DNA of 31,515 bases from a virus. This document shows, one piece after another, positions 4,989 to 29,426 of the stretch. Each line of letters opens with the position of its first letter. Positions within the stretch are counted from its first letter, which is position 1. The stretch lies in the IMG/VR virus record IMGVR_UViG_3300042556_001483, positions 1-31,515 of that record; one strand, given 5' to 3'. The translations under genes and the position numbers were made by a program. The notes under the pieces were generated by a model. It did not search any database and was not told the DNA's origin. It saw only the letters and a program-made list of their open reading frames with translations.

Positions 4989-5313
4989 TGTCTATAGCCC
5001 TTTTGCCATATATTTTTTTAATATCTCTTATTAATATACTAGAAAGAAGTTCCGGTATTAATTTATATACATTCAACTCTTTATAATTATTTGATTCATA
5101 ATAAGATAATTTACAATATCCGGTTATAGAATACCCAGATACTTTATGTTTTAAACCAAAAGCCCAAGATTTATATGCTTTATCAATTTTAAAATCAGCT
5201 TTTCTGTCTCTTATAAATTCGTTAAGACTCCATGAATATTCTTTTGAAAGATTATCCCAAATTATTTTTAATTCTTCTTTGTCGAAATCGGTGACATTTA
5301 TAAAATAACTCAT
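4981..5313 (-). CDS. Hypothetical protein, tandem paralogue B (110 aa)
   Basis: This is the second copy of the tandem pair. It carries KEELKIIWDNLS, YCKLSYYESNNYKEL and IRDIKKIYGKRAI, matching the neighbouring gene in order and spacing. Identity is moderate, so the duplication is not recent. Its start overlaps the previous stop as ATGA, tying it to the glycosyl block transcript. No function is suggested. Confidence 0.65.
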   Translation of the reverse strand: MSYFINVTDFDKEELKIIWDNLSKEYSWSLNEFIRDRKADFKIDKAYKSWAFGLKHKVSGYSITGYCKLSYYESNNYKELNVYKLIPELLSSILIRDIKKIYGKRAIDND

Positions 5314-6077
5314 TTTTTAATTTCTAAAATTCCGACCTTTGGTAATAATATTTTTTCAAACTTCTTTAGTTTAATATTTTCTATTTGGGTTTTTATATTG
5401 TCTTTAAATTGAAAGATACTACATAATAAGTCATATGGCGTATGTGTCTTTAATATATTGGTAGGAAATAGTTTTCCATGGTAAAATACCTCATTTCCCA
5501 ATATACAAAAATCCATAGCTATATGTTCACAATTATCTATAAGTACATGCACTTTTTTATAGTTTTTTGCTATAGAATATATAGAGCCGATACTCATAAC
5601 AATGTCTACAGAATCACACTCTTTTAAACCAATTATATGATAAGAGCCGCTAGGTTTTACAATTAATTTATCCATGTCGGAATCTTGAGATATAATATAC
5701 AAACTTTCTATTTCATATTTTATATCTTTAGAATCAGATATTAGATTATCCATAAATATATTACATGGTTGTATAGTCCTAGATAAAACCTTGCAATTTT
5801 TAATAGTTCTTTGGGCTTCACGTTCTTCATTTTCGTTGAAACATCTAATAATAGTAAGTACATTTTCTTCTTCAGATATTCTATTTAATATATCTTTTGA
5901 AATATTGTCGTATTTTGTTATAAATATATCTGGTTTATAAATGTCAAATATATCGTATGCGCTTTCTATATTCTTATTCCACAATTTAACCTCTGTATTT
6001 ATAGCAAGTAAAGCCAAATAAAGTGTTAAAGACTCACTATATAGATCTGACGAACAGTCCTGTATTAATATCTTCAT
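5310..6077 (-). CDS. Possible degenerate GT-B glycosyltransferase-like protein (255 aa)
   Basis: The N-terminus looks like the first Rossmann half of a GT-B enzyme: MKILIQDCSSDLYSESL, then FDIYKPDIFITKYDNI (a typical D-x-x-x-P-D-I pattern) at about residues 48-63. The C-terminal half has alternating strands and helices but lacks the E-x7-E nucleotide-sugar motif. It may be a diverged or inactive glycosyltransferase; this is a weak call resting on fold-like pattern and on its place in the sugar block. GAGGA precedes the ATG, and the gene overlaps its upstream neighbour by 41 bases. Confidence 0.5.
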   Translation of the reverse strand: MKILIQDCSSDLYSESLTLYLALLAINTEVKLWNKNIESAYDIFDIYKPDIFITKYDNISKDILNRISEEENVLTIIRCFNENEEREAQRTIKNCKVLSRTIQPCNIFMDNLISDSKDIKYEIESLYIISQDSDMDKLIVKPSGSYHIIGLKECDSVDIVMSIGSIYSIAKNYKKVHVLIDNCEHIAMDFCILGNEVFYHGKLFPTNILKTHTPYDLLCSIFQFKDNIKTQIENIKLKKFEKILLPKVGILEIKK

Positions 6078-6786
6078 ACATTTTCCTCACTTTGTTTTTT
6101 GTTTTAGAGTCTACTATTTTTATAATAGGGAAATTATTATCCATTATATTGAATTTTAGATTGGTTTCATTTAAAATTTCAAATAACATTTTATTACCAG
6201 AATTTTCTAAACAACAAATGGATCTTAATTTATCTATGTTTTCATATCCATTTATATAGAATATTTCAGACCATTTATTCGGTAAACCGTATGAAAAATT
6301 CGTTACACTATTATTTTCATCATGTATAAAACCTATGTCTAAATTTAAAAACTTTTCTTTTTGACTAAGAATAAAATTATTTGGGTTGAAATTAGTAAAC
6401 ACTTCTGGATATAACAACAAATATCCGTCTACTACTAGAATAGAGTCATTATCTATATTGTTTAAAGAAATCCTTAAACCTTCTACACAGGTTTTACTTT
6501 CGTAGGAATTATTTTCAACTATTCTAATATTACCCCCTCTATACCTTTTTTTTATGTGTTCTGATACAGCGTCTGCACCAAAACCACAGCAAATTATTAT
6601 TTCAGAGGAATTATCATATATCGCTCTAATGGCTGCTATTTGTATATCTATAAGTATATTTTTGCCAAATGCTAAAAACGGCGTAGGTCTATCTATTTTA
6701 AACTTATCAAATATATAATCTGAAAGTAATATAATAGATGGACTTGTTTTTCTATCTTTTTTTCTTTTAATAGGTATTGTTGTCAT
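6037..6786 (-). CDS. Nucleotidyltransferase-like protein (sugar-phosphate NTP transferase fold)
   Basis: The order of elements fits a GT-A-type nucleotidyltransferase such as the N-terminal domain of GlmU/RmlA. PTPFLAFGKNILIDIQIAAIRA (residues 34-55) replaces the usual KP-and-dimer segment, EIIICCGFGADAV follows, and DNDSILVVDGYLLL supplies the metal-binding Asp (D-G where many have D-x-D or G-D). The glycine-rich nucleotide loop near the N-terminus is not clear, so activity is uncertain. The context suggests it activates a sugar or polyol for the neighbouring glycosyltransferases. The start overlaps the preceding stop by four bases. Confidence 0.6.
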   Translation of the reverse strand: MTTIPIKRKKDRKTSPSIILLSDYIFDKFKIDRPTPFLAFGKNILIDIQIAAIRAIYDNSSEIIICCGFGADAVSEHIKKRYRGGNIRIVENNSYESKTCVEGLRISLNNIDNDSILVVDGYLLLYPEVFTNFNPNNFILSQKEKFLNLDIGFIHDENNSVTNFSYGLPNKWSEIFYINGYENIDKLRSICCLENSGNKMLFEILNETNLKFNIMDNNFPIIKIVDSKTKNKVRKMYEDINTGLFVRSI

Positions 6787-7250
6787 ATTTTTTCTATCAA
6801 TCCATAATTTGATAATTGTTCAATAACTTCTTTTATATTAAAACCTTCTACTTTAAATGAGTTAGATATAAATATAATATTACTTTTTGAATCTTGTATT
6901 GCTAAAAATTTTTCTTTATTTAAAAGTTTCTGAATAGCCCTATCCTTTAATTTTTCTAAATCTGATAGATTTCCATCTAAAAAGATACAAAAAAACATAC
7001 TATTAGTATTTCTAACTATATATTGAATTTCTACTTCTACATCATCACAAAATATAACTGTTAAATCATATTTCTCAGTCCTATCTTTTACATAACCTAA
7101 AAATTTTGTTACAAGATCATTACTAGATAATATAATATATTTAAACTTTTTACTTAATATTATGTCTATTTTATCTAAATCAATATTAGAACCGTCTATT
7201 AAGACTAAGGGTTTTATATGGTCAAAGTTATCTAGTGATTGAGAATTCAT
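6783..7250 (-). CDS. Hypothetical protein in glycosyl block (155 aa)
   Basis: The protein shows alternating strands and helices (PLVLIDGSNIDLDKIDIIL, YIILSSNDL, LTVIFCDD, FFCIFLDGNLSD), consistent with a Rossmann-like or HAD-like core, but no catalytic signature is complete. The ATG at 7250 is preferred over a TTG at 7265, which directly abuts AAGG. It overlaps the methyltransferase-like gene by 23 bases and the nucleotidyltransferase-like gene by four, so it belongs to the same transcript. The function is unknown. Confidence 0.6.
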   Translation of the reverse strand: MNSQSLDNFDHIKPLVLIDGSNIDLDKIDIILSKKFKYIILSSNDLVTKFLGYVKDRTEKYDLTVIFCDDVEVEIQYIVRNTNSMFFCIFLDGNLSDLEKLKDRAIQKLLNKEKFLAIQDSKSNIIFISNSFKVEGFNIKEVIEQLSNYGLIEKI

Positions 7251-7653
7251 TTTTAAGATATCCAACCTTGTAGGAAGTGTCTAAAATCATATTATTATCA
7301 GATATTAATTTTAAAATATCAGAATATCTTGGCAAGTTCTTAATATTAGGAATTAATTTATTTATTTCTAATTCAAATCCTTTCGGATTATCAAATCTAC
7401 CATCTATAGATAATATAGAATCCAATGTTACCATATTAAATTCTAAATATCCGCCCTTGCGTATCTTAGAACATATAAGGCTAAATACATTCGGCAATTC
7501 TTCCTTTGTTACGTAGTTAAAAAATCCATATATTAGCATCTTATCTATACTATTGTTATCTTCATTTGCTAGTGACTCTAAATTATTTATTATTTTATAT
7601 CCATCTATAAGATTATTTAAATTAGCATCTACAAGTAATTGAACATATTTCAT
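7228..7653 (-). CDS. Methyltransferase-like fragment (141 aa), lacks SAM motif I
   Basis: The segment FNYVTKEELPNVFSLICSKIRKGGYLEFNMV (45-75) resembles the back half of a class I SAM methyltransferase, where the conductor of the fold is a K-G-G-x-L strand-turn. The glycine-rich SAM motif I expected near the N-terminus is missing, so it is either a truncated, non-enzymatic relative or a look-alike. GGGG lies seven bases before the ATG. It sits between glycosyltransferase genes. Confidence in the gene is high; confidence in the family is low. Confidence 0.5.
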   Translation of the reverse strand: MKYVQLLVDANLNNLIDGYKIINNLESLANEDNNSIDKMLIYGFFNYVTKEELPNVFSLICSKIRKGGYLEFNMVTLDSILSIDGRFDNPKGFELEINKLIPNIKNLPRYSDILKLISDNNMILDTSYKVGYLKNEFSITR

Positions 7654-7654
7654 A

Positions 7655-8497
7655 TTAAGCCCCTTTTATTGATAAAAATAGATTATTCCAAGTGTCTATA
7701 AATACAGATTTCGACATATTTAAAATTTTATTTCTGGCATTAATCCCCATATAATTTCTTAATTCGATATCTATTTCTGGGAATTTTTCAATATCGGATA
7801 TATCTTTATAAATATAACCGTTTATACCGTGTTGTATTAATCCCTCGTTTGTTTGTAAAGATTTCTGACTAGTTATAATCGGCATTTCACAAGACATAGC
7901 CTCTAAAACATCGAAACCTATGTAATCTTTAACATTAAGAAAGGCGCTATTTTCATTATACAAATCTCTTCTATATTGTCCACATATAGGTGGCATGGTA
8001 TTTATAGATTTTTCATTTATTAGATTTTTAATAGCAAGCGGGGTTTGATCAAAACATAGTAGTTTATTAGATATATTTTTAATGTCTTTTTTAAAGTATT
8101 CTTTGTCTACACATTTTTCTATAAAAATAATGTTTGTATATTTATTTTCTTTAGCGTATTCTATATAAGATTCATTATCAAAGATATTTATATCACCATT
8201 ATTCATAATTCCATTTTCGTGATAACATATAATTAATGGGTTTCCATAAAATTTATTTTTTATATCAACTGATACGTGAAATCTTTTAGGATCACTGACT
8301 ATTATACAATCAATATTTATTGGAATTGTCTTGTTAAATAATCCGTAAAAGTTTTTTGGTCGATCCATATAATATGAATTATCTAAATAAAGCATATAAA
8401 AATCGGCGTTTGTATTAGAAAGATATTGATGACTAATATTATTTTCATTAAAAACTAATACATTCAATCTATTGTTTTTTTGTATCCATTTTTTCAT
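7655..8497 (-). CDS. Glycosyltransferase, GT4-like (280 aa)
   Basis: The C-terminal part has the nucleotide-sugar binding region of GT-B family 4 enzymes: YIGFDVLEAMSCEMPIITS (192-210) followed by GLIQHGINGYIY, the standard N-G-x-hydrophobic turn. The N-terminal half is short and only loosely Rossmann-like. The total length is below the usual 350-400 aa. It should transfer a sugar from a nucleotide donor; the acceptor (DNA base, virion protein or host surface sugar) cannot be told. The ATGA overlap links it to the next glycosyltransferase upstream. Confidence 0.75.
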   Translation of the reverse strand: MKKWIQKNNRLNVLVFNENNISHQYLSNTNADFYMLYLDNSYYMDRPKNFYGLFNKTIPINIDCIIVSDPKRFHVSVDIKNKFYGNPLIICYHENGIMNNGDINIFDNESYIEYAKENKYTNIIFIEKCVDKEYFKKDIKNISNKLLCFDQTPLAIKNLINEKSINTMPPICGQYRRDLYNENSAFLNVKDYIGFDVLEAMSCEMPIITSQKSLQTNEGLIQHGINGYIYKDISDIEKFPEIDIELRNYMGINARNKILNMSKSVFIDTWNNLFLSIKGA

Positions 8498-9501
8498 ATT
8501 AAAAGATCCTTAATAATTTTACCATTAAATTCTATAGACCCTGTATCAATTTCGTTTGATTCTAAGGTTGACTTTTTCCCTTCGGTAAATAGTTTTATAA
8601 ACATGTTTTTTAATTCTAGTATATCATATTTTACATACTTTTTAACATACCCATCTTTATATTCATGATTTATACTTTCTACAAGATTTGCGTTTTTAGA
8701 ATAATGATATACGCTATTATTGTGTGTTATTATTTGTGATCCAAACCCTACAGCATCCAAAGTATTATAATCTATACCAAAATCACTAGAAGTATTCACA
8801 AAACAGTCACAATATCTATGAAGAGAAGCCATTTTTTCATCTTCCATGTTTCCGCACATGATTATTTCTTTAGGGTAAGATATTTTACCTATTTTAGACT
8901 TTATAATCTCGGATATTTTACTAATATGATCAAACAAATCCTTTTCAGAGTCTTTAGATCTTAGTTTTATAATAAGAGAAACCGGATATGTTTCGTCGAA
9001 TGTTAGATAAAACGCTGTTAATAAATCTTCTACATTTTTATTTCTTGAATAATTCATTGTCGTATAAAATTTATAAGTATTATCTATATTTTTTATACTT
9101 ATAGATGGACCTTGCATATTATAAAAAGACTTATCTTTAAAACTAGGATATATAGTTTTCCCACAGTCTAAAAAATTGTTATAATGCCATATTTCGTCCA
9201 TTCTACTAATGACATCATCATACATTTTACCGCCCTCATAATCTATTATCCCTATATTTTTTTTGTACATAGATGATCCAATCATGTATTCTGTAGGAAC
9301 ATGTTGAATACAATGGGTTATATCATCAAGAGTATTATTAAAACATTCCGCTATTTCTTGATCAACTTTTCCATCTATTATAGTTTTACATACTACGTTC
9401 ACGCCATTCTTAATTAATCCTAAAACATTATCATTTGCCATTCTTGTAGTTTTTCCATTGCTACAAAAATCCCCTATATATAAAACCTTTATTTCTGACA
9501 T
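8494..9501 (-). CDS. Glycosyltransferase, GT-B fold (335 aa)
   Basis: The protein has an N-terminal Rossmann half (MSEIKVLYIGDFCSNG) and a C-terminal half starting near YKFYTTMNYSRNKNVEDLLTAF (about 163-184), the usual interdomain pattern of family 4. IIMCGNMEDEKMASLHRYCDCFVNTSSDFGIDYNTLDAVGFGSQIIT follows, the donor-binding region, in which the second acidic residue of E-x7-E is replaced by Asp. It is the middle member of three consecutive glycosyltransferases. The start has AGGAG about 11 bases upstream and overlaps the 553-aa gene by 13 bases. Confidence 0.75.
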   Translation of the reverse strand: MSEIKVLYIGDFCSNGKTTRMANDNVLGLIKNGVNVVCKTIIDGKVDQEIAECFNNTLDDITHCIQHVPTEYMIGSSMYKKNIGIIDYEGGKMYDDVISRMDEIWHYNNFLDCGKTIYPSFKDKSFYNMQGPSISIKNIDNTYKFYTTMNYSRNKNVEDLLTAFYLTFDETYPVSLIIKLRSKDSEKDLFDHISKISEIIKSKIGKISYPKEIIMCGNMEDEKMASLHRYCDCFVNTSSDFGIDYNTLDAVGFGSQIITHNNSVYHYSKNANLVESINHEYKDGYVKKYVKYDILELKNMFIKLFTEGKKSTLESNEIDTGSIEFNGKIIKDLLI

Positions 9502-11150
9502 AGCTTGTCATATCTCCTTTGTTCCCAATAATTTATCATATTTCGTATTTTTAACATGTCGTTATAGGCGTCTTTTGGTTCAAACGACATCATTTGTTTT
9601 CTACCATCAAAAGCGGCAGAACTTTCATTTAAATATAAACCACCTATTGTACCATTTCTATAACCGTATGTCAAGTCTCTGATTAGCCGACTTTCGAAAA
9701 AAGTATTAAGTTTTTCTGGTTGTCCAAGTACATTTAGTATTAACCATTTGGATAGTTCGGCTGGAACAAGTTTTTCAAGTTGTTCTGAATATTCTATAGG
9801 TCTAAATAATTTTGGTTTCGAATACCATGTGTAAGCCTCATTTTTTAATTCTAACGCATCGAAATTGTTCATAAGGTTTTGAGCCGATATATCTATTTTA
9901 TAATGCGAGATAAAGTTTTGGCGCGTTCTATCTTTTAATTCTTGAATATTCTTTATTCTAAAAAACTTTATAAACTCGTCTACAGCTAAATTGTTATCTG
10001 GAACCGCTCTTTCGCAACCAGTTTCAAGTTCTTTATAAAATGTTTTCGGTTCTAATTTTATCCCCTCTATATTTTGAAGTATACTAGTCATAGCAGAATA
10101 ATTTGTGGCGGCTATTGGTATACCACAAGCGGCTGCTTCTACAAGCGGAATACCGAAACCCTCTGAATTAGCATATTGTACATACAAATCCATGGAGTTA
10201 TAAATATTAACCAAATCTTCTAAACTAGCCCCGTTTTTAACCCCACAAATTTGTGCAGACATTTTACCTGTGTCTGGAGATATATTCTTAACACCCTTGT
10301 ATACATCTGCAAATATTCTTCCACTACTAGAACACTTATAAGTAAAAAGAACATTAGAACATACTTTATATTCTTGTAACAATTCTGGTATATCCCAACC
10401 TAAATCTGGAAAACCAGTGTGACAATATAGAAAATATTTAGACTGATCATCTACACTATCTAAAAACATTCTAAAAGCTTTAAATAAATCTGGGAACAAT
10501 TTACGACGCTGATTTCTCATAACCGTTCCTATTATTTTAATATCTTTATCTATACCTAGTTTTTCTCTAGCTTCTAATTGTGATATAGGTTTAAATATTT
10601 CATCTACAGAGGGTGAAGCGGTTCCTACATAATTAATCATATCATTAGATTGTTTTTTTAACACTTCTCCAGCCCATTCTGAATATGAAAAAACTATATC
10701 CGCATCTTTGTACATGTCAATCCAATGTCTAGCTTGTGGATAAGCATCTACAGTAGGCATTAGTGCAAAATTATAGTATTTTCTAAACGGCGAAGATTGT
10801 ATATATGAACACATCCAATAATCACGTATATCATAAATTATGTCAGGTCTAAAATCTAAACACACTTCTTCAAATATAAAAGATCCAAATTGAGATATTG
10901 TATCATTTTGATATCTATCTATTTCTTCTTTATTTGCCACAGGTTCATAATTCATATTTGGCATTACACCATAATATTTCCAAGGAAGATTTAAACCCCT
11001 TGGATCATTTCTTTCTCCGTATGCGGCAAGTTCCGCTAATTCATATTTATTAGTATTTTGTAGATATTCTAACATTCTTCTAGAATAATTAGCGTATCCA
11101 GTATTCAGAAAAGAAGCTTCTGAACAAAAAAGTATTTTGGGTTTTCTCAC
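9489..11150 (-). CDS. Glycosyltransferase family 4 (553 aa), GTG start
   Basis: This is the most complete enzyme of the sugar block. The N-terminal Rossmann half begins KILFCSEASFLNTGYANYSRR (5-25); the interdomain region has IIGTVMRNQRRKLFPDLFKAF (206-226) with the conserved Arg/Lys pair; the donor site is NSEGFGIPLVEAAACGIPIAATN (328-350) with the full E-x7-E (Glu330, Glu338). About 180 extra residues follow the catalytic core, ending in a region of unknown function. The start is GTG, forming a GTGA overlap with the polymerase stop, with AAGGAAA upstream. The overlap puts it on the polymerase transcript. Confidence 0.85.
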   Translation of the reverse strand: MRKPKILFCSEASFLNTGYANYSRRMLEYLQNTNKYELAELAAYGERNDPRGLNLPWKYYGVMPNMNYEPVANKEEIDRYQNDTISQFGSFIFEEVCLDFRPDIIYDIRDYWMCSYIQSSPFRKYYNFALMPTVDAYPQARHWIDMYKDADIVFSYSEWAGEVLKKQSNDMINYVGTASPSVDEIFKPISQLEAREKLGIDKDIKIIGTVMRNQRRKLFPDLFKAFRMFLDSVDDQSKYFLYCHTGFPDLGWDIPELLQEYKVCSNVLFTYKCSSSGRIFADVYKGVKNISPDTGKMSAQICGVKNGASLEDLVNIYNSMDLYVQYANSEGFGIPLVEAAACGIPIAATNYSAMTSILQNIEGIKLEPKTFYKELETGCERAVPDNNLAVDEFIKFFRIKNIQELKDRTRQNFISHYKIDISAQNLMNNFDALELKNEAYTWYSKPKLFRPIEYSEQLEKLVPAELSKWLILNVLGQPEKLNTFFESRLIRDLTYGYRNGTIGGLYLNESSAAFDGRKQMMSFEPKDAYNDMLKIRNMINYWEQRRYDKLCQK

Positions 11151-13132
11151 TCTGTTATTTCCTTTAGTTCATATACTATTAATGATCCATCTTTTACGTC
11201 GCCTGTTAATAAAACATTATTATCTTCAAATAGGGAAAATCTATATTCTTCTTTTGCGTCTGGAAACATAACAACCGAATCTAATTCTCCGGTATCATCC
11301 TTGATAGTTAGAAACGCCATTTCCCTATCTTTATTCTGACCTTCTTTTTTTATTGTATGAAAATTTATTTTAGTAATAGTGCAACAAATTCTAACATTTT
11401 TAAGGTTTGTCGAATTTCCAGCATTTAATATTCTATCGCAAGTAGTTGTTGATAATAATTGCGGCATAGAGTATTTATCTATAGATATTTCACACCCTAA
11501 CAATTCTTTTTCAGTAGATAGTACCCAATTAGGGTCATCTTTATCTAAATCGTATGGGGGCTTTTCTAATAGCATTATTTCATTTAATATAAAATTCATT
11601 CTTCCTATTGTATTAGTGCCACCACCCTCTTTTTTTGTAGGAGACAAGTCTTTGAGACATAATATTAAATCTTTCCAAGTTTTCCCATTTTTTCTTTGCT
11701 CTTTTATCCATAATATTTCCTTGTCATTTATATTTTTGAATATATTATATTCGTAAAGTTTTCTAGTTCTGCTCTCTTTTCCTATATTATCAAAGAAACC
11801 TACAGAGCATAGGGCTTTAAAATTTGTAGATACTATATTTGTAGAAAGATCTATTAATACATCTATCCACGATGGGTTTTTATTGTTTTTTGAGAAATTT
11901 TCTATTTCTAAATTACATTCTTCACCCCTTTTATTTGTTAAACTTTTTATACTTTTAAGTCCGAAATATATAGTATTTGTCTTTCTGTCCATTTTATATA
12001 ATTCACACATATTGAACATATCGCACATTTTTATATTTATACCAAACCCATTTCTAGCTTCAGATATTAATTCATAAACTTCTTCATTTTTATCTTGTTT
12101 TTCGCCAGAATATTCTAAACATGCTGTAAAAAATTCCAAAGGGTAATGATATTTCATATAAGCTGTAGCTAAAGATGTTTTAGCATAAGAATAAGCGTGT
12201 GAATTACTAGTAGCTATACCATTTCCATAAAATAAATGTTCTTTAGAGTCAACTTCTATATCTACAGATCTTTTGATACCAACACTTTTTACACCGATAA
12301 TTCTTTTAGCTTGTTCTTTAGACATTATTTTATGATTATTCTCTAAAATTTCTGATAAAGGTCTTTTTATTGAATCTTCGCACATAAATTCATGATCTAA
12401 AGAGCAGGTTATACTAAAACCATCTTCCAACTCTACTTCATATAACTCTTTATCCCCAGATTCCATAAAATTTAATACTTCTATAAATTTATCACCATCT
12501 TCTGTAGGACAAAGTATTTTTTCTCCGATACTTAATTCGTCCAATGTTTTAATTTCTCCACGATCTGTTTCTACGAATGTATTTGGATCTAAACATGCGT
12601 TAAATTGATATCTAGCACTCTTCTCAATTATATCAAATATTTCTTCGGCTTTTTCTTTAGTTATAACCCCCGTTTTTATACATCCATTTATGAATTCATC
12701 TCTAAGTTTTATCATAAGTGCGGCATCCTTTTTTCCTATACTTTTTCTTAGTCTATCCGCATCTACGCCAGAAAATCCCGCTACTTTTTGAGCTATTTGC
12801 ATACTTTGCTCTTGATACAACATAAGACCAAGAGTATATTCTAATATTTCTTTACAGTTATCATCTATATATACAACTGGTTCTTTATTATGTCTTCTAT
12901 CAACATAATGTTGTGTTATAGATTTGTCATCAATTATAGCCTTAAGCGATCCAGGTCTTAAAATACTTATTAAAGCAGAAAGTTGTTCTAAACTCTCCGG
13001 TTTTAATTTTTTAGACCAATTTTTGCCCAAACTACTTTCTAATTGAAATATGCCCTTTGTTTTACCGTCTGCAAATATATCCCAAACACCTTTTTCGTTT
13101 TCTATATTTTTATTCCACATATAATTTCCCAT
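11147..13132 (-). CDS. dnaE: DNA polymerase III alpha subunit, C-terminal half, with mini-intein
   Basis: This half begins just after the third catalytic Asp of the enzyme. KGIFQLESS (26-34) and ISILRPGSL (55-63) match the GVFQLES and ALYRPGPL motifs of DnaE; YTLGLMLYQEQSMQIAQKVAGFSG and ADRLRKSIGKK (125-135) are fingers motifs; FNA|SHAYSYAKTSLATAYMKYHYP follows, interrupted by an intein at residues 180-310. A C-terminal OB-fold region (RICCTITKINFHTI to the end) binds single-stranded DNA in relatives. Without the intein it is 530 aa; with the N-terminal gene the total is 1029 aa, somewhat short for DnaE. An internal ATG at 13120, with GGGA upstream, is an alternative start. It should form one polymerase with the product of the gene at 14480-15979. 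Confidence 0.9.
   Translation of the reverse strand: MGNYMWNKNIENEKGVWDIFADGKTKGIFQLESSLGKNWSKKLKPESLEQLSALISILRPGSLKAIIDDKSITQHYVDRRHNKEPVVYIDDNCKEILEYTLGLMLYQEQSMQIAQKVAGFSGVDADRLRKSIGKKDAALMIKLRDEFINGCIKTGVITKEKAEEIFDIIEKSARYQFNACLDPNTFVETDRGEIKTLDELSIGEKILCPTEDGDKFIEVLNFMESGDKELYEVELEDGFSITCSLDHEFMCEDSIKRPLSEILENNHKIMSKEQAKRIIGVKSVGIKRSVDIEVDSKEHLFYGNGIATSNSHAYSYAKTSLATAYMKYHYPLEFFTACLEYSGEKQDKNEEVYELISEARNGFGINIKMCDMFNMCELYKMDRKTNTIYFGLKSIKSLTNKRGEECNLEIENFSKNNKNPSWIDVLIDLSTNIVSTNFKALCSVGFFDNIGKESRTRKLYEYNIFKNINDKEILWIKEQRKNGKTWKDLILCLKDLSPTKKEGGGTNTIGRMNFILNEIMLLEKPPYDLDKDDPNWVLSTEKELLGCEISIDKYSMPQLLSTTTCDRILNAGNSTNLKNVRICCTITKINFHTIKKEGQNKDREMAFLTIKDDTGELDSVVMFPDAKEEYRFSLFEDNNVLLTGDVKDGSLIVYELKEITE
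12203..12595 (-). other. Mini-intein (131 aa) in polymerase C-terminal half
   Basis: The insert interrupts the extein sequence FNA/SHAYSYA, which is continuous in DnaE relatives. It starts with Cys (CLDPNTFVETDRG, block A), has a block B-like GFSITCSLDHEF in which Ser replaces the usual Thr of T-x-x-H, and ends VDIEVDSKEHLFYGNGIATSN (blocks F and G) before Ser +1. The penultimate residue is Ser, not His, a known variant. At 131 residues there is no room for a homing endonuclease. The site is two to three residues from the cyanobacterial DnaE split-intein site, which lies before C-F-N-K-S-H, so it is a neighbouring but distinct insertion point. Confidence 0.88.
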
Positions 13133-13790
13133 CTGCGAAAGCCCCAGGCATTTTATTACAAAGTAGTTTTTGATATATTTCCCTCTGTGTTTTAAGAAAT
13201 AGTATCATTATATTTGCCGTATCTTTTACATCTTGTAAAGCGTCGTGAGCATTATTGCTAGATAAACCAGTTATTTCTCTCATTTTATCAAGACTTACAG
13301 ATTTAATATCTGGGTCAGATTCTGTCCAAGAATAAACTATATCAAGTACATCTATTTTAAAGATGGGGCTAAATAAAGTTTGTTTATTATTTTTATATTG
13401 TCCAAATTTTTTACACAATCTATCTATAATAACCATGTCATAGTTTATTATATTATAACCACAAGGTATAGGAGCAAAAAAACTTGTATTATTAAAATTA
13501 TATTTATTTACAAAATCTACAAATTTAGGCCAAACATATTTAATATCTGGTGCTAAAGAAATCTTTTCTCTAGTCTTTCCGGTAATCTTTAAAGCCCCCT
13601 CTTGTACTGGTTCTAAACCTAATTCTATAGCTTTTTCATCATCTGTTTCTGCAAATATCTCAGAGTTGAACGACCCTTTTAGTTTGAACGATCTACCATC
13701 TAAGGCTATAGCCGCAATCTGTGTTAGTTGACATGTATGAGGATTTTTCCCCCCAGTTTCAAAGTCCAAAATTATTAAATCTCTATTCAT
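13110..13790 (-). CDS. dnaQ: DnaQ-like 3'-5' exonuclease (DEDDh), probable proofreader
   Basis: Exo motifs are ordered as in DEDDh nucleases: DLIILDFETGG (4-14) with the D-x-E pair, IPCGYNIINYDMVIID with the second Asp, and NAHDALQDVKDT (residues 184-195) with the His and last Asp. Family members remove mismatched 3' ends. The gene lies between the two polymerase halves and overlaps both flanking genes, and the polymerase PHP domain looks inactive, so this is the likely proofreading subunit. RNase T or other processing roles cannot be excluded. The ribosome binding site is weak. Confidence 0.88.
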   Translation of the reverse strand: MNRDLIILDFETGGKNPHTCQLTQIAAIALDGRSFKLKGSFNSEIFAETDDEKAIELGLEPVQEGALKITGKTREKISLAPDIKYVWPKFVDFVNKYNFNNTSFFAPIPCGYNIINYDMVIIDRLCKKFGQYKNNKQTLFSPIFKIDVLDIVYSWTESDPDIKSVSLDKMREITGLSSNNAHDALQDVKDTANIMILFLKTQREIYQKLLCNKMPGAFADGKLYVE

Positions 13791-14058
13791 TTATAGTTAT
13801 AGATTCCCCCATTCTTTGAATATACCCCCTAAAAATAGTACCTTCGGGTTCACATGAAATATAATCACATATATATATATTTCCATTTATATCATAAAAT
13901 TTATAATCACTCATAGGAGTGTCGATATATAAAAATTTATTTAATGATGCGACAGTAAACTCAAATTTTCCAAATATTTCATCGGGCCAACTTTCTAACC
14001 TAAAATCTATTATAGGTAAGTTTTCTCCATATTTATCGAATATTTCTATTTCTACCAT
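13783..14058 (-). CDS. Hypothetical small protein, paralogue of its upstream neighbour (91 aa)
   Basis: The protein is beta-rich and related to the next gene upstream: IFDKYGENL versus IFDKNGVDL, a following F-x-x-L-S-F-like strand, and YKFYDINGNIYICDYI versus DDLYDINGNVFEVIDI in the same order. The shared D-I-N-G-N turn suggests a small beta-barrel or sandwich. No known family is recognised. Its position between the polymerase halves, overlapping the exonuclease start, hints at a link to replication, but nothing in the sequence shows it. Confidence 0.65.
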   Translation of the reverse strand: MVEIEIFDKYGENLPIIDFRLESWPDEIFGKFEFTVASLNKFLYIDTPMSDYKFYDINGNIYICDYISCEPEGTIFRGYIQRMGESITINE

Positions 14059-14060
14059 TA

Positions 14061-14483
14061 TTAGCTAAAATCTACCCATGAAATGCCAGACGGAGTATAT
14101 GTTATAAACATAGACTTTGCACAATTTAACCACCATTGTTTATAAAAATCTTCATTTATTTCTTCATGTTTACCAATTACTATTGTTATTACATTGCTAT
14201 AATATATTGAACCAGCAATATCTATTACCTCAAAAACATTTCCGTTGATATCATACAAGTCATCATCCAAATATAACTCTTTATTATATAATATATCGAA
14301 ACTTAATCGATTTAAAATTGAAGGTAAATTATTACTTTTTATTGAATATAAATCTACACCATTTTTATCAAAAATTCCAAGATTTATTGATTCTCCATTA
14401 TAAACCGTCTTATTGATTTCTTTTTCCCCCCATGGAGGAATAAATTGTCCAGAATTATATATACCATAAGGTGGTTTTATCAT
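14061..14483 (-). CDS. Hypothetical protein, paralogue of its downstream neighbour (140 aa)
   Basis: The core (GIFDKNGVDLYSI and YDINGNVFEVIDI) matches the smaller downstream gene. It has an extra N-terminal segment rich in Gly, Pro and Tyr (KPPYGIYNSGQFIPPWG) and a C-terminal extension with WW. It could be a structural or protein-binding module. Translation is coupled to the polymerase N-terminal half by ATGA, and its stop lies two bases before the next start. Function is unknown. Confidence 0.65.
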   Translation of the reverse strand: MIKPPYGIYNSGQFIPPWGEKEINKTVYNGESINLGIFDKNGVDLYSIKSNNLPSILNRLSFDILYNKELYLDDDLYDINGNVFEVIDIAGSIYYSNVITIVIGKHEEINEDFYKQWWLNCAKSMFITYTPSGISWVDFS

Positions 14484-15979
14484 ATTCTTATTAACTCTTC
14501 TATTCTCATTAATTTACTTAATACAGAAACCCCCAATATGTCCAGCTTAACTAATGAAATACTTTCCAAATCTCCCATTTCCATTTGTGCTATACCATTT
14601 ATAACTGGACATGATTCTATTATATCATTTTTAGATATTATTATACCCGCCGCATGTGTACCTAAATTTTTAAAAGTACCCTCAAGTCTAATAGCTTTAT
14701 CAAACGCTTCTGCATAATCGCCTGTTAGAGTACCATCTTCTTTTAATTCGCAAAATTGTCCAAGCTTTTCTTTTCTATTTATTAAAGCCCATTTTATTAT
14801 GCTTCTATCTTCCATTTTTTCTAAAGAGTCTGATATAGCGGCTTCATCTGGAATAAATTTTGTCATAGCATTCATTTCTGAAAAACCGCATGAATCGGTT
14901 ACCCTTAAAACTTCTTTAAGAACACTTCTTCCTTGAAGTCTACCAAATGTACATATTTGGGCTACTTTATTCCTTCCATATTTATTTCTTATATACTCTA
15001 TTATAATATCTCTTTTAGAAGAAGGTACGTCTAAGTCTATATCTGGAAGAGATATATTATCCTTTGTATTCCTAGAAGAATTATAAAACCTTTCAAATAA
15101 AAGATTATATTTTATAGGATCTATCTTAGTAATATCCATTAAGTATGATATTAAACAACCGGCAGCAGACCCACGACCACACCCCGTTAAGAATCCTTGA
15201 GAATTACAATACTCAACAATATCAGCAACAATAAGAAAATATCCAAACAAATTAGCCGACTTAATAACATTAAATTCATGATGAAATCTCTCTAAATACA
15301 ATCTTTTATCTTCCTCCGATTTTAAAATTGGGTTTATCTTATTTACCCACCCAATTCTACATATATCTTTTAATAATTCTTCTTCGGTCTTTTCCCCAGC
15401 AAAACTTGGTAATAAGGGTTTTCCAAGTATTTCATAATCCTCGCAATCAATCAATATAGATTCTATAAGATCTGAAGAATCTTCATAATCTGGTAGATTT
15501 AAATCTCTATTAAATATATGTTTATATTCAAAGGGTTTTACATCATTAATTTTTAATTTAAGACCGCTACAAACTGATATTCTATGTATATCTTGGTCCG
15601 AACTATTACAATAGTAATAACCTTTTATAGACCCGTCATTTAAACGAAAATCTTTAAAATTTTTATTTACTTCATTAGAAACACAAATTATATTATCTGT
15701 AGAAGTTTCTATACCACTATGTATTTTTATTAATTCTTTCCATCCAGATTTATTTTTAGCAAAAAGATGCGTATCTTTATCTAAAGACATTCCTAATATA
15801 GGCTTTATTCCAAATTTTTTACATTCTTTATAAAATTCTACACATCCAGAAACAGTTTTTAAATCTGTTATACCACAATATTCATAACCATATTCAAGGC
15901 ATTTTTTAACCAACTCTTTTGGTTTAGAAAATCCATATTGTAAACTATAGTGTGTAAAATTAACTAGTGGTGCAAACAT
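14480..15979 (-). CDS. dnaE: DNA polymerase III alpha subunit, N-terminal half
   Basis: The first part (1-190) is a reduced PHP domain in which the metal-binding His pair (H-x-H in active PHP domains) is replaced; only LVNFTHYSL remains, with later GITDL and FKDF-like remnants. The palm follows: GCGRGSAAGCLISYL (266-280), SLPDIDLDVPSSKRD (310-324) with Asp313 and Asp315, and LVKLDILGVSVLSKL (476-490) with Asp480, the equivalents of E. coli Asp401, Asp403 and Asp555. The protein stops at residue 499, before the thumb/fingers link that opens the other gene. All three catalytic Asp are thus in this half and the fingers and OB fold in the other. AGGAG precedes the ATG, which directly follows the previous TAA. 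Confidence 0.92.
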   Translation of the reverse strand: MFAPLVNFTHYSLQYGFSKPKELVKKCLEYGYEYCGITDLKTVSGCVEFYKECKKFGIKPILGMSLDKDTHLFAKNKSGWKELIKIHSGIETSTDNIICVSNEVNKNFKDFRLNDGSIKGYYYCNSSDQDIHRISVCSGLKLKINDVKPFEYKHIFNRDLNLPDYEDSSDLIESILIDCEDYEILGKPLLPSFAGEKTEEELLKDICRIGWVNKINPILKSEEDKRLYLERFHHEFNVIKSANLFGYFLIVADIVEYCNSQGFLTGCGRGSAAGCLISYLMDITKIDPIKYNLLFERFYNSSRNTKDNISLPDIDLDVPSSKRDIIIEYIRNKYGRNKVAQICTFGRLQGRSVLKEVLRVTDSCGFSEMNAMTKFIPDEAAISDSLEKMEDRSIIKWALINRKEKLGQFCELKEDGTLTGDYAEAFDKAIRLEGTFKNLGTHAAGIIISKNDIIESCPVINGIAQMEMGDLESISLVKLDILGVSVLSKLMRIEELIRI

Positions 15980-16993
15980 TTAAGCTCCTGGCGCATCATA
16001 ACTAGACCTATCAAAACCATTACAACTTAATTTTTCTTGAGCTATCTTAATCCCATAAGTTTTTATACCATCTTCTACATGTTCACAGATACTCTTATTT
16101 GTACCTGGAAATTGCTCTTTATAAAAATGGCATAATCTTGTACATTTAAAATTAGATCTATTAGCAGAACATAACTTAGGGAATTTCGTATTACTTATGT
16201 CGTAAAACTTTTTCTTTAATCTTTTTAAGAACTCTTTTTCATCATCTTCATCAAAAGAAAGTGAAAACGGTCCCCCATCTCTCAAAAAGATTATAGTCAG
16301 AATTCGGTTTTTATATTCCGGATACAGCTTAGAAATTGCATAATTATATAACAAAAGTTGCGTATCTTGCATCAATTTTTTGTAATCTTTAACTTCCCCT
16401 GTAGCCCAATCTTTACGTTGGCCAGTTTTGTAGTCTATTACTTCTATAGTATCTTCATCTAGTTTAGTAACTAAGTCTATAGTTCCTTTAATGGCTAATT
16501 GACATTCTTTGCCATTATAGTCAAATTTAGCCCAATCTTCATCGATAGGTATATCAAAAAATGGTTCAGGCGCTAATATATTTCTATATCTAGGGTCGAA
16601 AACATTATATTTATCAATTAAACCCTTACATAAATCATAACAAAAATCAAAGTCTTTTTCTTCATATTCATGAATACATTTATTAGAATAATATAAGAAA
16701 CTTTTCCAACAAACGGATTCTATAAAATCGTCAGTATATAATTCTGTTTTAGACCATTTTATATTGCCTATATCTTTATCTTCTAATGTAAAAACTCTTT
16801 TATTAGGGTTGTCTTGTAACTGTTTTTTACAATTAGCAAGCGTTTCCATTGTTTTATGTGATATAGTACCCAATACAGCCTTTTTATTTGCCGGTGACTT
16901 ATAGCCCAAAACATATTGAATAAAGTACTGCATAGCGCAAAATTCATGATTTCCGAGACTCGACGATCTGAAATATAAAGTTGGTATATTAAT
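15980..16993 (-). CDS. PD-(D/E)xK nuclease, RecB/Cas4-like, probable AUU start
   Basis: The nuclease core has SHKTME (His46, counting from the ATT at 16993), IKGTIDLV with Asp173, EVIDYKTG with Asp187 and Lys189, and a following QLLLYNY. Cys275, 284, 288 and 303 near the C-terminus, with Cys19, could hold an iron-sulfur cluster as in AddB and Cas4. The first ATG (16933) lies inside the domain: the 20 codons before it encode RSSSLGNHEFCAM, the standard opening of this family, and contain no stop. The only ribosome binding site, AGGAG at 17003-17007, is nine bases before an ATT and six before an ATA. The enzyme probably resects or trims DNA ends during replication and recombination. Confidence 0.85.
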   Translation of the reverse strand: MNIPTLYFRSSSLGNHEFCAMQYFIQYVLGYKSPANKKAVLGTISHKTMETLANCKKQLQDNPNKRVFTLEDKDIGNIKWSKTELYTDDFIESVCWKSFLYYSNKCIHEYEEKDFDFCYDLCKGLIDKYNVFDPRYRNILAPEPFFDIPIDEDWAKFDYNGKECQLAIKGTIDLVTKLDEDTIEVIDYKTGQRKDWATGEVKDYKKLMQDTQLLLYNYAISKLYPEYKNRILTIIFLRDGGPFSLSFDEDDEKEFLKRLKKKFYDISNTKFPKLCSANRSNFKCTRLCHFYKEQFPGTNKSICEHVEDGIKTYGIKIAQEKLSCNGFDRSSYDAPGA

Positions 16994-17002
16994 TATTAAT
17001 TA

Positions 17003-17023: not shown

Positions 17024-17842
17024 TTACATCATTGTATAAATTATTTTGTCATAATTTTTGTCTAAATATTGTATATATTCTTCATGCGTCATATTTTTAT
17101 TATCTATAATCATATCAAAATTTTCATAGTTATTTAACGCTGTTTCACTTTCATGTTTTGATCCTAAAACATTTCTAGTTAATCTTATTATTTTCCCTCC
17201 ATTTTTCTTAATTTCATTCGCCTCGTTTTCAAACCTTACATCTGTTATTATAGATATTTCAGAATGTTCTAATAGTATTTTTTTAATTGTTTTATTAACC
17301 CATACTAAATCGTATATCTTACGCATAATTTCTGTGGCAAAATATTGCATAAGTTCAACCCCAGACATAAAACTATCATTTTTCTTGAAAGTAAATTTAT
17401 CAGACAATCCATAAGCGTCTAAATTTCCATATATTTCATCGTAAGCCAAATCATCTTTGTAAATAATAACTCCTGGCATATCTCCCCACTTAATATTAGT
17501 TTTAGCGATACGGGCTTCTTCATTACCATAAACGGATTCTAACTTTATTCCAAACAAATCTATTAACATATCTTTTAAGGGTTCTGCAAAACTATAACAT
17601 TTAACGTATGGCCAAATAGTTGTCCTAGCATGATACGAAAATTCGTCATCTTTTCTATCAAGATCTAAAACTCCCCAATCTATATCACCATTTGCAAATT
17701 TAGTTTTTACCAAAAGTTTTCCATTAGAATCTAAATTAAAATCTTCGATCATATTAGATTCTTTTAATTTTCTACCTGTAATATAATTACCAAGAGTGTT
17801 CTTGCCGCTCCTTTTAGTGCCAGAAATACCTATTATATTCAC
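17024..17842 (-). CDS. Deoxynucleoside monophosphate kinase (T4 gene 1-like)
   Basis: The protein (272 aa) opens with a P-loop, GISGTKRSGKNT (5-16), and has YSFAEPLKDMLIDLFGI (83-99) and SIITDVRFENEANEIKKNGGKIIRL (about 197-221), features of phage dNMP kinases that make dNDPs from dNMPs. It also has an adenylate-kinase-like lid region. It supplies precursors alongside the RNR and dUTPase in this cluster. The GTG start has GGGGAAG upstream and overlaps the primase stop by one base (TAGTG). Confidence 0.85.
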   Translation of the reverse strand: MNIIGISGTKRSGKNTLGNYITGRKLKESNMIEDFNLDSNGKLLVKTKFANGDIDWGVLDLDRKDDEFSYHARTTIWPYVKCYSFAEPLKDMLIDLFGIKLESVYGNEEARIAKTNIKWGDMPGVIIYKDDLAYDEIYGNLDAYGLSDKFTFKKNDSFMSGVELMQYFATEIMRKIYDLVWVNKTIKKILLEHSEISIITDVRFENEANEIKKNGGKIIRLTRNVLGSKHESETALNNYENFDMIIDNKNMTHEEYIQYLDKNYDKIIYTMM

Positions 17843-18849
17843 TAATACTTCCCCTTTAAATTAAATAATATGTTATTTTTTATATCAATTGGATTCATTT
17901 TGCCTATATCTTTTTTGTAGGAAAATCTTGGAAAAATTAAATTATAAAATCTCGACAAATCCCTCATAAGATTAACTTTAGACTCTCTTCCGGATTCATC
18001 GCTATCTAGTAATACTACTATATTTAAAACACAAAGTTTATCTAATTTTATTCTTTGATTTAAAGATATATCTTTACCCATTATAGAAACGCAATTTAAA
18101 ACACCGGCTTCATACATTCTCCAAACATCTCCAGAACCTTCAACTAAAAAAATAGTATTACTTTGTTTAGCTACATTAGACGCCCTATGATAATTATAGA
18201 GATAATCCCCCTTTTTAAAATTTTTTTCTATTAAGAATTTTGGCTCTAACCAATCTACGGTAGACCTATAAAGATTGGATATTACAATAGATCCATCGTC
18301 ATTATGTATTGGTATAATAGATCTAAGTCTAGATATCCCATATTTTAATAAAGAATCTCCTACACCAAAAAACCTCATAGTATCCGGATTGTATAATCTT
18401 TTTTTTACAAAATAATCTGAGGGTATTTTGACATCTTTTATAGTTTTATCGATATCGCAATTATCGAATGTTGTATTTTCATTTATTTTATTTATTTGTG
18501 ATATAAAATCTATTTTCTTTTGAGTGTTATTACTGGTTATTTTAGAACTTATATTGAATTCCTTTTTCACCCATTTTATAACATCGTAGAAGTTAGCCTC
18601 TTTATCTTTAGATAAAAACCCTTTTATTAATCCAAACACATCATTTCCATACTCATTTTGACACCCATGAGTCCAACAAACCCATTTTTTACTCTTGTGA
18701 TAATAAGAAAAACTCCGCTCATTATCTCCATTATGAATTGGACATTTACAAATAAGCGGTTCAGAATTAGAGCATTCCATATTAAGTTTTTTAAAAACTT
18801 CAGATATATTATCTTCTAAGAAAGATTTAACTTTGCTTAAGTCATTCAT
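17842..18849 (-). CDS. dnaG: DNA primase, DnaG-like (zinc finger and TOPRIM)
   Basis: An N-terminal CHC2-type zinc finger (CPIH at 36-39, CWTHGC at 58-63) is followed by an RNA polymerase-like domain with TIFLVEGSGDVWRMYEAG (232-249, Glu237) and IVVLLDSDESGRE (277-289, Asp282 and Asp284), the TOPRIM metal site. At 335 aa it is short for DnaG and lacks the C-terminal helicase-binding domain. It synthesises RNA primers for replication. The overlap of eight bases with the helicase gene stop and order helicase-primase fit a primosome pair. Confidence 0.9.
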   Translation of the reverse strand: MNDLSKVKSFLEDNISEVFKKLNMECSNSEPLICKCPIHNGDNERSFSYYHKSKKWVCWTHGCQNEYGNDVFGLIKGFLSKDKEANFYDVIKWVKKEFNISSKITSNNTQKKIDFISQINKINENTTFDNCDIDKTIKDVKIPSDYFVKKRLYNPDTMRFFGVGDSLLKYGISRLRSIIPIHNDDGSIVISNLYRSTVDWLEPKFLIEKNFKKGDYLYNYHRASNVAKQSNTIFLVEGSGDVWRMYEAGVLNCVSIMGKDISLNQRIKLDKLCVLNIVVLLDSDESGRESKVNLMRDLSRFYNLIFPRFSYKKDIGKMNPIDIKNNILFNLKGKY

Positions 18850-20302
18850 CTATATCTAATTCCATATTATCAATTTCGTCTTTTGCTATTAAACCTCTAT
18901 CATTAATAGATCTTTTACATTCATTTCTTGTATTTATTTCTTTTATTAACCCTATAGAGCCATCAAATTTAATATTTATATAATCTCCATAATCTAATCC
19001 AGCACCATGTCTAGAAACTATCGGTACTAATTTTCTATTACCATTTAATAGTCCATCGTCAGCAATTTCTTCTAGGGTTTTATGTTTAAATATAGTAAAA
19101 GATGTACATAACCAAATTATTCTATCGGAACCGCTGACCACATCTGTACTTTCTCTAGTTTCACCCTCTCTATTTAACTGAACAAAAGCTAAACAAGGTA
19201 TATCTAATTTAACACAAACATTATGTAATTCGCTAATTTGAAAACCAAGGGCTTGATATTCTTGTATATTTGCATTTATACTAGAAGAACTCATAAGTTT
19301 AAGATAATCATAAATTACTAAACAATCTTTAGTTTTTCCATTTTCATCCTTTCCAACTGTTTGCATAACCCATCTTTTTATATGATTGGATATTACATTA
19401 AATGGTTGACCGGCAACGTTTATATAATAATATTTAAATTCTGAGAATTTTTTAGCCGCATCTCTAACAAGTTTCTTCTTTTCTGGGTCTTTAGCAAAAC
19501 TACCATTTTCTATTTCGTCTAATTTTACCCCACTTAAACCCGCTAATATTCTATAATAATGGTCTTCTTTTGACATTTCTGTATCAAGTAATAATACAGG
19601 ATAATCTTTATTAGATGTTATATTTATAGCTATACTATCTCCTATATAACTTTTCCCAACCTTACTTCTTGCCGCTATTATATTTACGGTTTTTCTTCTT
19701 AATCCACCACCTATAGATTTATCATATCTAGGAAATCCGGTTGGGATACCTATATAATCACATGGATTATTCTCTAGAAAATCTACATAATCTATTACAT
19801 CTTCTCCTAATCTTTCGGGTTTTTCACCAATAGATTCCATAGATATAGCTTTAATTAATGGTTTTTCTACTATATCTATTATATCATCTATTGACTCAGT
19901 ACCATTAGTAGACTTTAGATTATCTAATATTTTTTGCGTTTCATCTTTCAAACTTCTTAAAAATGAAAGCTTCTTTAATTGTGCAGAAAACTTGAAAACA
20001 TTATCTTTATTTATATTAAGTGTTTTTAAAGATTTTAAATAGTCTATATCTGATAATATATCTTCTTTTAAATTTAATATATTAGCAGCGGAAGTTATAC
20101 TAACAACATCTATACTTAAATTATTTTCTATAATATATTTTAAACATCTATATATAATAGCGTTTTGATTATTATAAAAATCTAATTCTGAAAGTATATC
20201 TTGTATTTCTACATAAACCTCTGAACCATATTGAAAAAGCCCTGATAAAACCGCTCTTTCTAATCCTAAATCATGATCATTAACGTCCAACACATTTCTC
20301 AC
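18842..20302 (-). CDS. dnaB: Replicative DNA helicase, DnaB-like
   Basis: The N-terminal domain (LGLERAVLSGLF to about residue 115) is the helical collar of DnaB. The RecA-like motor domain has GIPTGFPRYDKSIGGGLRRKTVNIIAARSKVGKS (Walker A at 210-218), LLLDTEMSKEDHYYR (motif 1a), CLVIYDYLKLM (Walker B) and a SGSDRIIWL motif with the arginine-finger region. It unwinds the template ahead of the polymerase. The start is a weak GTG at 20302; TTG four codons later is an alternative, and no strong ribosome binding site is present, so coupling with the gene ahead (23-base overlap) is likely. Confidence 0.92.
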   Translation of the reverse strand: MRNVLDVNDHDLGLERAVLSGLFQYGSEVYVEIQDILSELDFYNNQNAIIYRCLKYIIENNLSIDVVSITSAANILNLKEDILSDIDYLKSLKTLNINKDNVFKFSAQLKKLSFLRSLKDETQKILDNLKSTNGTESIDDIIDIVEKPLIKAISMESIGEKPERLGEDVIDYVDFLENNPCDYIGIPTGFPRYDKSIGGGLRRKTVNIIAARSKVGKSYIGDSIAINITSNKDYPVLLLDTEMSKEDHYYRILAGLSGVKLDEIENGSFAKDPEKKKLVRDAAKKFSEFKYYYINVAGQPFNVISNHIKRWVMQTVGKDENGKTKDCLVIYDYLKLMSSSSINANIQEYQALGFQISELHNVCVKLDIPCLAFVQLNREGETRESTDVVSGSDRIIWLCTSFTIFKHKTLEEIADDGLLNGNRKLVPIVSRHGAGLDYGDYINIKFDGSIGLIKEINTRNECKRSINDRGLIAKDEIDNMELDIDE

Positions 20303-29407: not shown

Positions 29408-29412
29408 TGTTT

Positions 29413-29416
29413 CTCC
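29413..29416 (-). promoter_or_regulatory. Ribosome binding site of the ribonucleotide reductase
   Basis: GGAG on the minus strand, five bases before the ATG at 29407; it decides between this ATG and the TTG at 29428, which lies in the terminator tail. Confidence 0.65.
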
Positions 29417-29426
29417 ATCTTTAGAC

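What the first reader, a model, noticed from the sequence alone, without database searches (positions are those of the whole stretch)
11147..15979. DNA polymerase III alpha split into two non-adjacent genes
The N-terminal gene holds all three catalytic Asp residues and stops after the LDILG strand; the C-terminal gene resumes at the FQLES/RPG motifs. Three other genes lie between. No intein halves flank the break, so the parts must meet as separate proteins rather than by trans-splicing. A two-subunit catalytic alpha polymerase in a phage is rare and makes a self-contained replisome question.
Basis: partly seen in the sequence, partly recalled or inferred. Interest (0 to 1): 0.78.

Follow-up and report, generated by a model that had tools for sequence, protein, structure and literature searches.

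The report
Phage replicase split into two subunits
A large family of uncultivated phages makes its main DNA-copying enzyme as two separate proteins, cut at the same point, with a proofreading-enzyme gene usually lying between them; the copy in this window also carries a self-removing protein insert, so it is a natural test of how such a large enzyme can work in pieces.

Summary
The split is real. A 499-aa protein (PHP, palm and thumb; all three catalytic Asp) matches E. coli DnaE residues 5-574. A separate 661-aa protein (fingers to OB fold) matches about 565-1074. Three genes lie between them, one a DEDDh 3'-5' exonuclease.

It is neither a pseudogene nor an assembly error. 132 non-identical viral loci break at the same palm|fingers junction, and 125 of them carry the exonuclease gene between the halves. 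Purifying selection is strong (dN/dS about 0.04) and the catalytic residues are essentially invariant. Twelve long contigs carry no PolA, PolB or bacterial-type clamp. Of 80 bacterial dnaE loci, 79 keep palm and fingers in one frame.

In the two closest relatives that intein is itself split by an endonuclease gene, so their polymerase is three polypeptides. The window's intein is 96-100% identical in DNA to one relative's, although the flanking gene is only 68-79% identical.

"Rare" is wrong. Split Pol III alpha in phages has precedents (a minimal jumbo-phage version; Cellulophaga phi13:1), but the break point, completeness and gene order here differ. Assembly of the halves is inferred, not shown. 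Verdict: new variant of a known kind.

The parts
14480..15979 (-). N subunit of the split Pol III alpha: degenerate PHP domain, palm, thumb; 499 aa; catalytic D313, D315 (near 15035-15043) and D480 (14540-14542)
   Evidence: Pfam PF07733 6e-67 and PHP 3.5e-16; AlphaFold mean pLDDT 93.8; whole model aligns to E. coli DnaE 2hnh residues 5-574, Z 26
11147..13132 (-). C subunit of the split Pol III alpha: fingers, C-terminal region, OB fold; 661 aa before protein splicing, 530 aa after
   Evidence: Pfam DNA_pol3_finger 3.7e-40; model aligns to E. coli DnaE 5fku 565-1074, Z 21.8, and to 2hnh 566-907, Z 20.3, rmsd 3.1
12203..12595 (-). 131-aa mini-intein inside the C subunit, residues C180 to N310, followed by S311; no endonuclease domain
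   Evidence: gp41-1 intein structures 6qaz 2.3e-10 over 180-310; NCBIfam intein_Nterm above cut-off; relatives without it run FN-K-SHA
12314..12322 (-). intein fusion point (SKE): position where L002 and L042 carry a separate endonuclease gene that splits the intein
   Evidence: DNA comparison with L002 and L042
13110..13790 (-). DnaQ-like DEDDh 3'-5' exonuclease, 226 aa, lying between the halves; overlaps the start of the C subunit gene by 23 nt
   Evidence: RNase_T 1.7e-11; phrog_192 DNA polymerase exonuclease subunit 3e-24; D9, E11, D118, H182, D187 invariant in alignment
13783..14058 (-). small unknown protein, 91 aa, resembles the 140-aa one
   Evidence: no Pfam or PHROG hit; alignment
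14061..14483 (-). small unknown protein, 140 aa; overlaps the end of the N subunit gene by 4 nt
   Evidence: no Pfam or PHROG hit; counterpart in L002 and L042
15980..16933 (-). PD-(D/E)XK nuclease upstream of the N subunit gene (same neighbour in L002 and L042)
   Evidence: Pfam PF12705 4.5e-15
17842..18849 (-). DNA primase (TOPRIM) of the same replication operon
18842..20302 (-). DnaB-type replicative helicase
   Evidence: Pfam DnaB_C 7.6e-26

Best explanation
These phages use a two-subunit C-family replicase. An ancestral full-length dnaE was broken once, or at most a few times, exactly between the palm and the fingers. The N product (PHP-palm-thumb, all three metal-binding Asp) and the C product (fingers to OB fold) fold separately and pack through the palm-fingers interface to rebuild one active site. 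They are made from one operon, with a proofreading exonuclease gene in between whose end usually overlaps the start of the C gene; that coupling should give comparable amounts of the proteins. In this window the C product is made as a 661-aa precursor from which a 131-aa mini-intein splices itself out (C180 to N310; ligation of A179 to S311). That joins two residues between the conserved N178 and H312 (E. coli N757 and H760), so splicing is probably needed for activity. Shown: the split, its conservation, selection, fold completeness, gene order, intein homology. Inferred: assembly, activity, splicing, exonuclease binding, co-translation.
For: Complementary fold coverage of E. coli DnaE, 5-574 and about 565-1074, with a confident N model (pLDDT 93.8). 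132 non-identical loci with the same break (N profile ends at 596-601 of 602, C profile starts at 1-17), 125 of them with the exonuclease gene between. 31 of the 34 split rows in the tree form one clade, support 100/100. Median dN/dS 0.037 (N), 0.045 (C), 0.027 (exonuclease). Catalytic Asp present in every sequence with a residue there (131-132 of 132 loci); N757 and H760 equivalents near-invariant. N and C trees broadly agree. One palm and one fingers gene in 11 of 12 long contigs (two of each in the twelfth), no PolA or PolB. Exonuclease gene overlaps the C gene in 90 of 125 loci. E. coli palm-fingers was treated as one rigid body (PMC4703070), so a large interface is expected. The intein matches gp41-1 inteins.
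Against: No biochemical evidence for either half. The viral records may be incomplete, so another polymerase cannot be fully excluded. The window's own record is only 31.5 kb. The intein region of the C model is poorly predicted (pLDDT below 50).
Confidence: 0.85

Rival explanations
1. Assembly artefact or recent gene decay: the halves are fragments of one broken dnaE.
For: A draft Bacillus genome (L204) shows what a fragmented dnaE looks like: several short frames with pieces missing.
Against: The same break and gene order on 132 loci from many independent contigs; strong purifying selection on both halves; each half is domain-complete.
Confidence: 0.02
2. The halves are rejoined before or during translation or by protein trans-splicing (intron, bypass or split intein at the break).
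For: The closest relatives do have a split intein, but inside the C half. Cyanobacterial DnaE is joined by a split intein (known). Bacillus phage KLEB27-3 has an HNH gene between its dnaE parts.
Against: Intact coding genes occupy the gap, different ones in different lineages (exonuclease; dUTPase and thymidine kinase; glycosylase; methyltransferases). No Rfam intron at 10500-17000. No intein motif at the end of the N half or the start of the C half. The C subunits have their own start codons, nearly half of them with an added Cys-rich head.
Confidence: 0.04
3. Two independent fissions at the same junction (main clade, and the L033/L290/L291 group) rather than one fission with later re-fusion in L030/L286/L032/L036/L287.
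For: The tree needs two changes and the second split group nests with unsplit genes, 99/95.
Against: One split clade is not rejected (AU p = 0.092). L033 shares the CGC...C head with main-clade C subunits, while none of the unsplit genes has it.
Confidence: 0.45
4. The split enzyme is not the replicase but a repair or accessory polymerase.
For: The split minimal Pol III alpha of jumbo phages coexists with a PolB and may be accessory (PMC7824862).
Against: No PolA or PolB found in 12 contigs of 93-230 kb; in the window it sits beside helicase and primase genes, with a proofreading-type exonuclease.
Confidence: 0.08

Closest known systems
Bacterial DnaE (Pol III alpha), E. coli 2hnh/5fku and Taq 2hpi/3e0d
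   Same: Same domains in the same order through the OB fold; same catalytic Asp; folds align over the whole of both halves
   Different: One chain in 79 of 80 bacterial loci examined; here two chains, no residues aligned beyond about E. coli 1074 (no tau-binding tail found), PHP metal site degenerate in the window
Split minimal Pol III alpha of group 2.2 jumbo phages (Iyer et al. 2021, PMC7824862)
   Same: Phage C-family catalytic subunit encoded as two standalone proteins proposed to reconstitute one enzyme
   Different: Theirs lacks the PHP and other domains, is cut between NTP-binding and Mg-binding parts, is encoded by distant genes and accompanies a PolB; here both parts are near full length, cut after all three Asp, in one operon around an exonuclease, with no PolB found in long relatives
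Cellulophaga phage phi13:1 and phiST, two adjacent dnaE genes (KC821625)
   Same: Isolated phage with two genes annotated DNA polymerase III alpha
   Different: Break lies inside the palm (profile 402|406 of 602), genes adjacent, no exonuclease between
Cyanobacterial DnaE split by a trans-splicing intein
   Same: DnaE made in two polypeptides; an intein near the FNKSH motif
   Different: There the intein rejoins the halves; here the palm|fingers break has no intein, and the intein sits within the C subunit a few residues from the cyanobacterial site (site position from memory)
Fractured genes with split inteins and a free-standing endonuclease (Dassa et al. 2009, paper not held)
   Same: L002 and L042 C subunits are interrupted by IntN, an endonuclease gene and IntC, as I recall that arrangement; nearest solved intein is gp41-1
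   Different: The window lacks the endonuclease gene and its intein halves are fused in frame
Split DNA polymerase A of OM43 phages MEP401/402 (PMC10580990)
   Same: Phage replicase encoded by two ORFs with a small ORF between, in many related genomes
   Different: A different polymerase family (PolA)

Membership tests
C-family DNA polymerase, DnaE type | palm with three catalytic Asp in PDxD and (K/L)xDxLG motifs | tested here: met
   D313, D315, D480; Asp in every residue-bearing sequence, 131-132 of 132 split loci; alignment to E. coli DnaE
C-family DNA polymerase, DnaE type | domain order PHP-palm-thumb-fingers-OB and DnaE fold | tested here: met
   order kept across the two genes
C-family DNA polymerase, DnaE type | single catalytic polypeptide | tested here: not met
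   two genes 1.3 kb apart, break conserved; the pair is a split variant
C-family DNA polymerase, DnaE type | DNA synthesis activity | not testable with these tools
   needs purified N and C subunits
Split minimal Pol III alpha of group 2.2 jumbo phages | only nucleotidyltransferase core, no PHP or other DnaE domains | tested here: not met
   PHP, fingers and OB domains present
Split minimal Pol III alpha of group 2.2 jumbo phages | co-occurs with family B polymerase | tested here: not met
   no PolB in 12 long relatives; the window itself is only a fragment
Intein (Hint fold, protein splicing) | Cys1, C-terminal Asn and Ser/Thr/Cys +1, splicing blocks, inserted at a conserved site of the host protein | tested here: met
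   C180, N310, S311; 6qaz 2.3e-10 over the whole stretch; NCBIfam intein_Nterm 25.7 bits against cut-off 24.5; Pfam Intein_splicing 24.2 bits, below cut-off 35.8; relatives uninterrupted at FNKSH
Intein (Hint fold, protein splicing) | splices out | not testable with these tools
   needs expression of the C precursor
DnaQ-like DEDDh exonuclease | DEDDh active-site residues | tested here: met
   D9, E11, D118, H182, D187 invariant in six sequences; Pfam RNase_T
DnaQ-like DEDDh exonuclease | binds the polymerase and proofreads | not testable with these tools
   inferred from gene order only (125 of 132 loci)

The most novel reading that the evidence does not exclude
A whole clade of phages relies on an obligate two-subunit C-family replicase whose palm and fingers are separate proteins assembled with a proofreading exonuclease. 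In the window's group it was further cut into three polypeptides by a split intein, and the window's intein is a rare natural case of a trans-splicing intein that went back to cis-splicing after losing its endonuclease gene.
Probability: 0.5. Interest if true: 0.78.

Novelty: new variant of a known kind. Interest (0 to 1): 0.64.

Why it matters
Pol III alpha is the bacterial chromosomal replicase, and its palm and fingers are treated as one rigid body. A clade that keeps them as two proteins, apparently with no other replicase, suggests the enzyme can be assembled from parts at its active site. It gives a natural N/C pair for biochemistry, such as a controllable split replicase. It raises the question whether a proofreading subunit takes part in assembly, and shows where annotation will wrongly report truncated dnaE genes. 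The nested intein pair (three-piece in L002 and L042, one insert in the window) is a before-and-after case for how split inteins form and revert.

Tried and rejected
Pseudogene or assembly error: rejected by recurrence and dN/dS. RNA intron at the break: no Rfam match up to E = 1. Intein at the break: no Hint signature at either end. A second intact dnaE that would make the split copy dispensable: only one palm gene in 11 of 12 long records. DAC23 looked split from a partial BLAST match but is one 1277-aa gene. KLEB27-3 has two dnaE genes with an HNH gene between and no Rfam intron; not followed further. Isolated phages with the same break: none close in INPHARED (all matches below 60% identity, full-length ones at about 27-35%). 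No palm|fingers split among 80 bacterial loci except a fragmented draft gene. Bacterial-type beta clamp in long relatives: none. Single origin of all splits: not decided. Literature: no held paper found that describes this clade; Dassa 2009 and Kazlauskas 2011 were not held. Habitat of the contigs was not determined.

Full report
Observation. On the minus strand, 14480-15979 encodes 499 aa with PHP and Pol III alpha palm domains, and 11147-13132 encodes 661 aa with the fingers and OB domains. Against E. coli DnaE, sequence alignment runs to about residue 565 for the N product and resumes at 593 for the C product. The N product carries D313, D315 and D480 (E. coli D401, D403, D555). Between them lie a 140-aa and a 91-aa protein that resemble each other and have no Pfam or PHROG match, and a 226-aa DEDDh exonuclease. 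Adjacent genes overlap or nearly touch, as expected for one operon. The surrounding genes are a PD-(D/E)XK nuclease, a primase, a DnaB helicase, a RecA-like protein, PhoH and an apparent ribonucleotide reductase (the last named from its sequence).

Structure. The N model (52 sequences) has mean pLDDT 93.8 and aligns over its whole length to 2hnh 5-574 (Z 26.0, rmsd 3.1, 470 residues). The C model aligns to 5fku 565-1074 (Z 21.8) and to 2hnh 566-907 (Z 20.3, rmsd 3.1). Together they cover DnaE up to the OB domain; no part aligned to the tau-binding tail. The cryo-EM work treats palm and fingers (281-432 plus 510-810) as one rigid body (PMC4703070). So the two proteins must form an extensive interface next to the active site. 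This assembly is inferred, not shown.

Conservation. Profiles built from both halves were run over all fetched viral loci. 132 non-identical loci have the palm|fingers break, with the N profile ending at 596-601 of 602 and the C profile starting at 1-17. (The script's count of 134 includes two loci broken elsewhere, L127 and L296.) In 125 of the 132 the exonuclease gene lies between. Its stop overlaps the C-gene start in 90 of 125 loci, taking the longest frame as the start. The other seven have other genes between: dUTPase, unknown proteins and thymidine kinase in the L033 group, macro domain and uracil-DNA glycosylase in L279, methyltransferase and glycosyltransferase-like genes in L288 (these names are my reading of the sequences, not profile hits). 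Twenty-four viral loci, including many isolates, are unsplit, and in 79 of 80 bacterial loci palm and fingers share a frame. These numbers describe loci found with split queries, so they are not a census.

Selection and residues. Median dN/dS in close pairs is 0.037 (N), 0.045 (C) and 0.027 (exonuclease). All three Asp are present in every sequence with a residue there; the equivalents of N757 and H760 in the C half are near-invariant. The PHP metal-binding His residues are lost in the window and in a sizeable minority of relatives and kept in 73 of 132, which fits proofreading by the separate exonuclease.

History. In the careful tree 31 split rows form one clade (100/100). The basal pair L279/L288 is split without the exonuclease between, so the exonuclease gene was probably placed there after the break or lost from that pair. 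The L033/L290/L291 group is split at the same point but nests with unsplit genes (99/95); a single split clade is not rejected (AU p = 0.092). L033 shares a CGC...C head on the C subunit with 60 other split C subunits; none of the 15 whole or otherwise broken genes checked has it. That favours one break with later re-fusion but does not prove it. N and C trees broadly agree, so the halves travel together.

Role. Twelve relatives of 93-230 kb each have one palm and one fingers gene (one contig has two of each), no PolA, no PolB and no bacterial-type clamp. The split enzyme is therefore probably the only replicase. Record completeness is unknown.

The intein. C-half residues 180-310 match gp41-1 inteins (2.3e-10) and end in N310-S311. 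The gene is uninterrupted FN-K-SHA in relatives, and the window, L002 and L042 have Ala in place of that Lys. In L002 and L042 the C gene is broken inside the intein by a free-standing gene of about 300 aa, so the intein must act in trans and the polymerase is three polypeptides. The free-standing gene has only a weak DUF559 hit; its EVDGDYWHSNP-type motif recalls the EDxHD homing endonucleases from memory, which is a lead, not a test. Window and L002 inteins are 96% (IntN) and 100% (IntC) identical in DNA while the flanking coding sequence is 68-79% identical, which points to recent horizontal movement. With L042 as outgroup, the simplest order is that the window's ancestor had the split form and lost the endonuclease gene, fusing the halves through SKE. 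The reverse order needs two gains.

Known and new. Split Pol III alpha in phages is not without precedent: a minimal two-piece version in group 2.2 jumbo phages beside a PolB (PMC7824862), and two adjacent dnaE genes broken within the palm in Cellulophaga phi13:1. No held paper that I found describes a near-full-length alpha broken at palm|fingers around an exonuclease gene. I rate it a new variant of a known kind.

The claims of rarity and of a self-contained replisome are not supported as stated, and the intein was missed.

Noticed in passing
window 25934-29428 (-): An apparent ribonucleotide reductase carries a LAGLIDADG intein (Pfam Intein_splicing 2.5e-12, LAGLIDADG_3 4.9e-12), so at least two genes of this phage hold inteins.
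   Followed up: partly
L042 4028-6001: The PD-(D/E)XK nuclease next to the polymerase appears to carry a large intein (DYK...HN|TGQRK) that is absent in the window's copy at 15980-16933.
   Followed up: no
L276 4669-7587: Another split-clade C subunit has a different, larger intein-like insert just before the YQEQ motif.
   Followed up: no
start of C subunits, e.g. L014 10654, L033 11615: A CGC...C head (possible zinc site) begins 61 of 132 split C subunits and none of the 15 unsplit or otherwise broken homologues checked; the window's subclade lacks it.
   Followed up: partly
window 13783-14483 (-): Two small mutually similar proteins of unknown function between the N subunit and the exonuclease; counterparts found only in L002/L041 and L042.
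   Followed up: partly
L038 5109-10517; L122 2848-6455: Two other phage dnaE genes are broken at a different place, between PHP and palm.
   Followed up: no
window 5310-11150 (-): A block of genes downstream of the polymerase includes glycosyltransferase group 1 (9489-11150) and several proteins that look glycosyltransferase-like.
   Followed up: no
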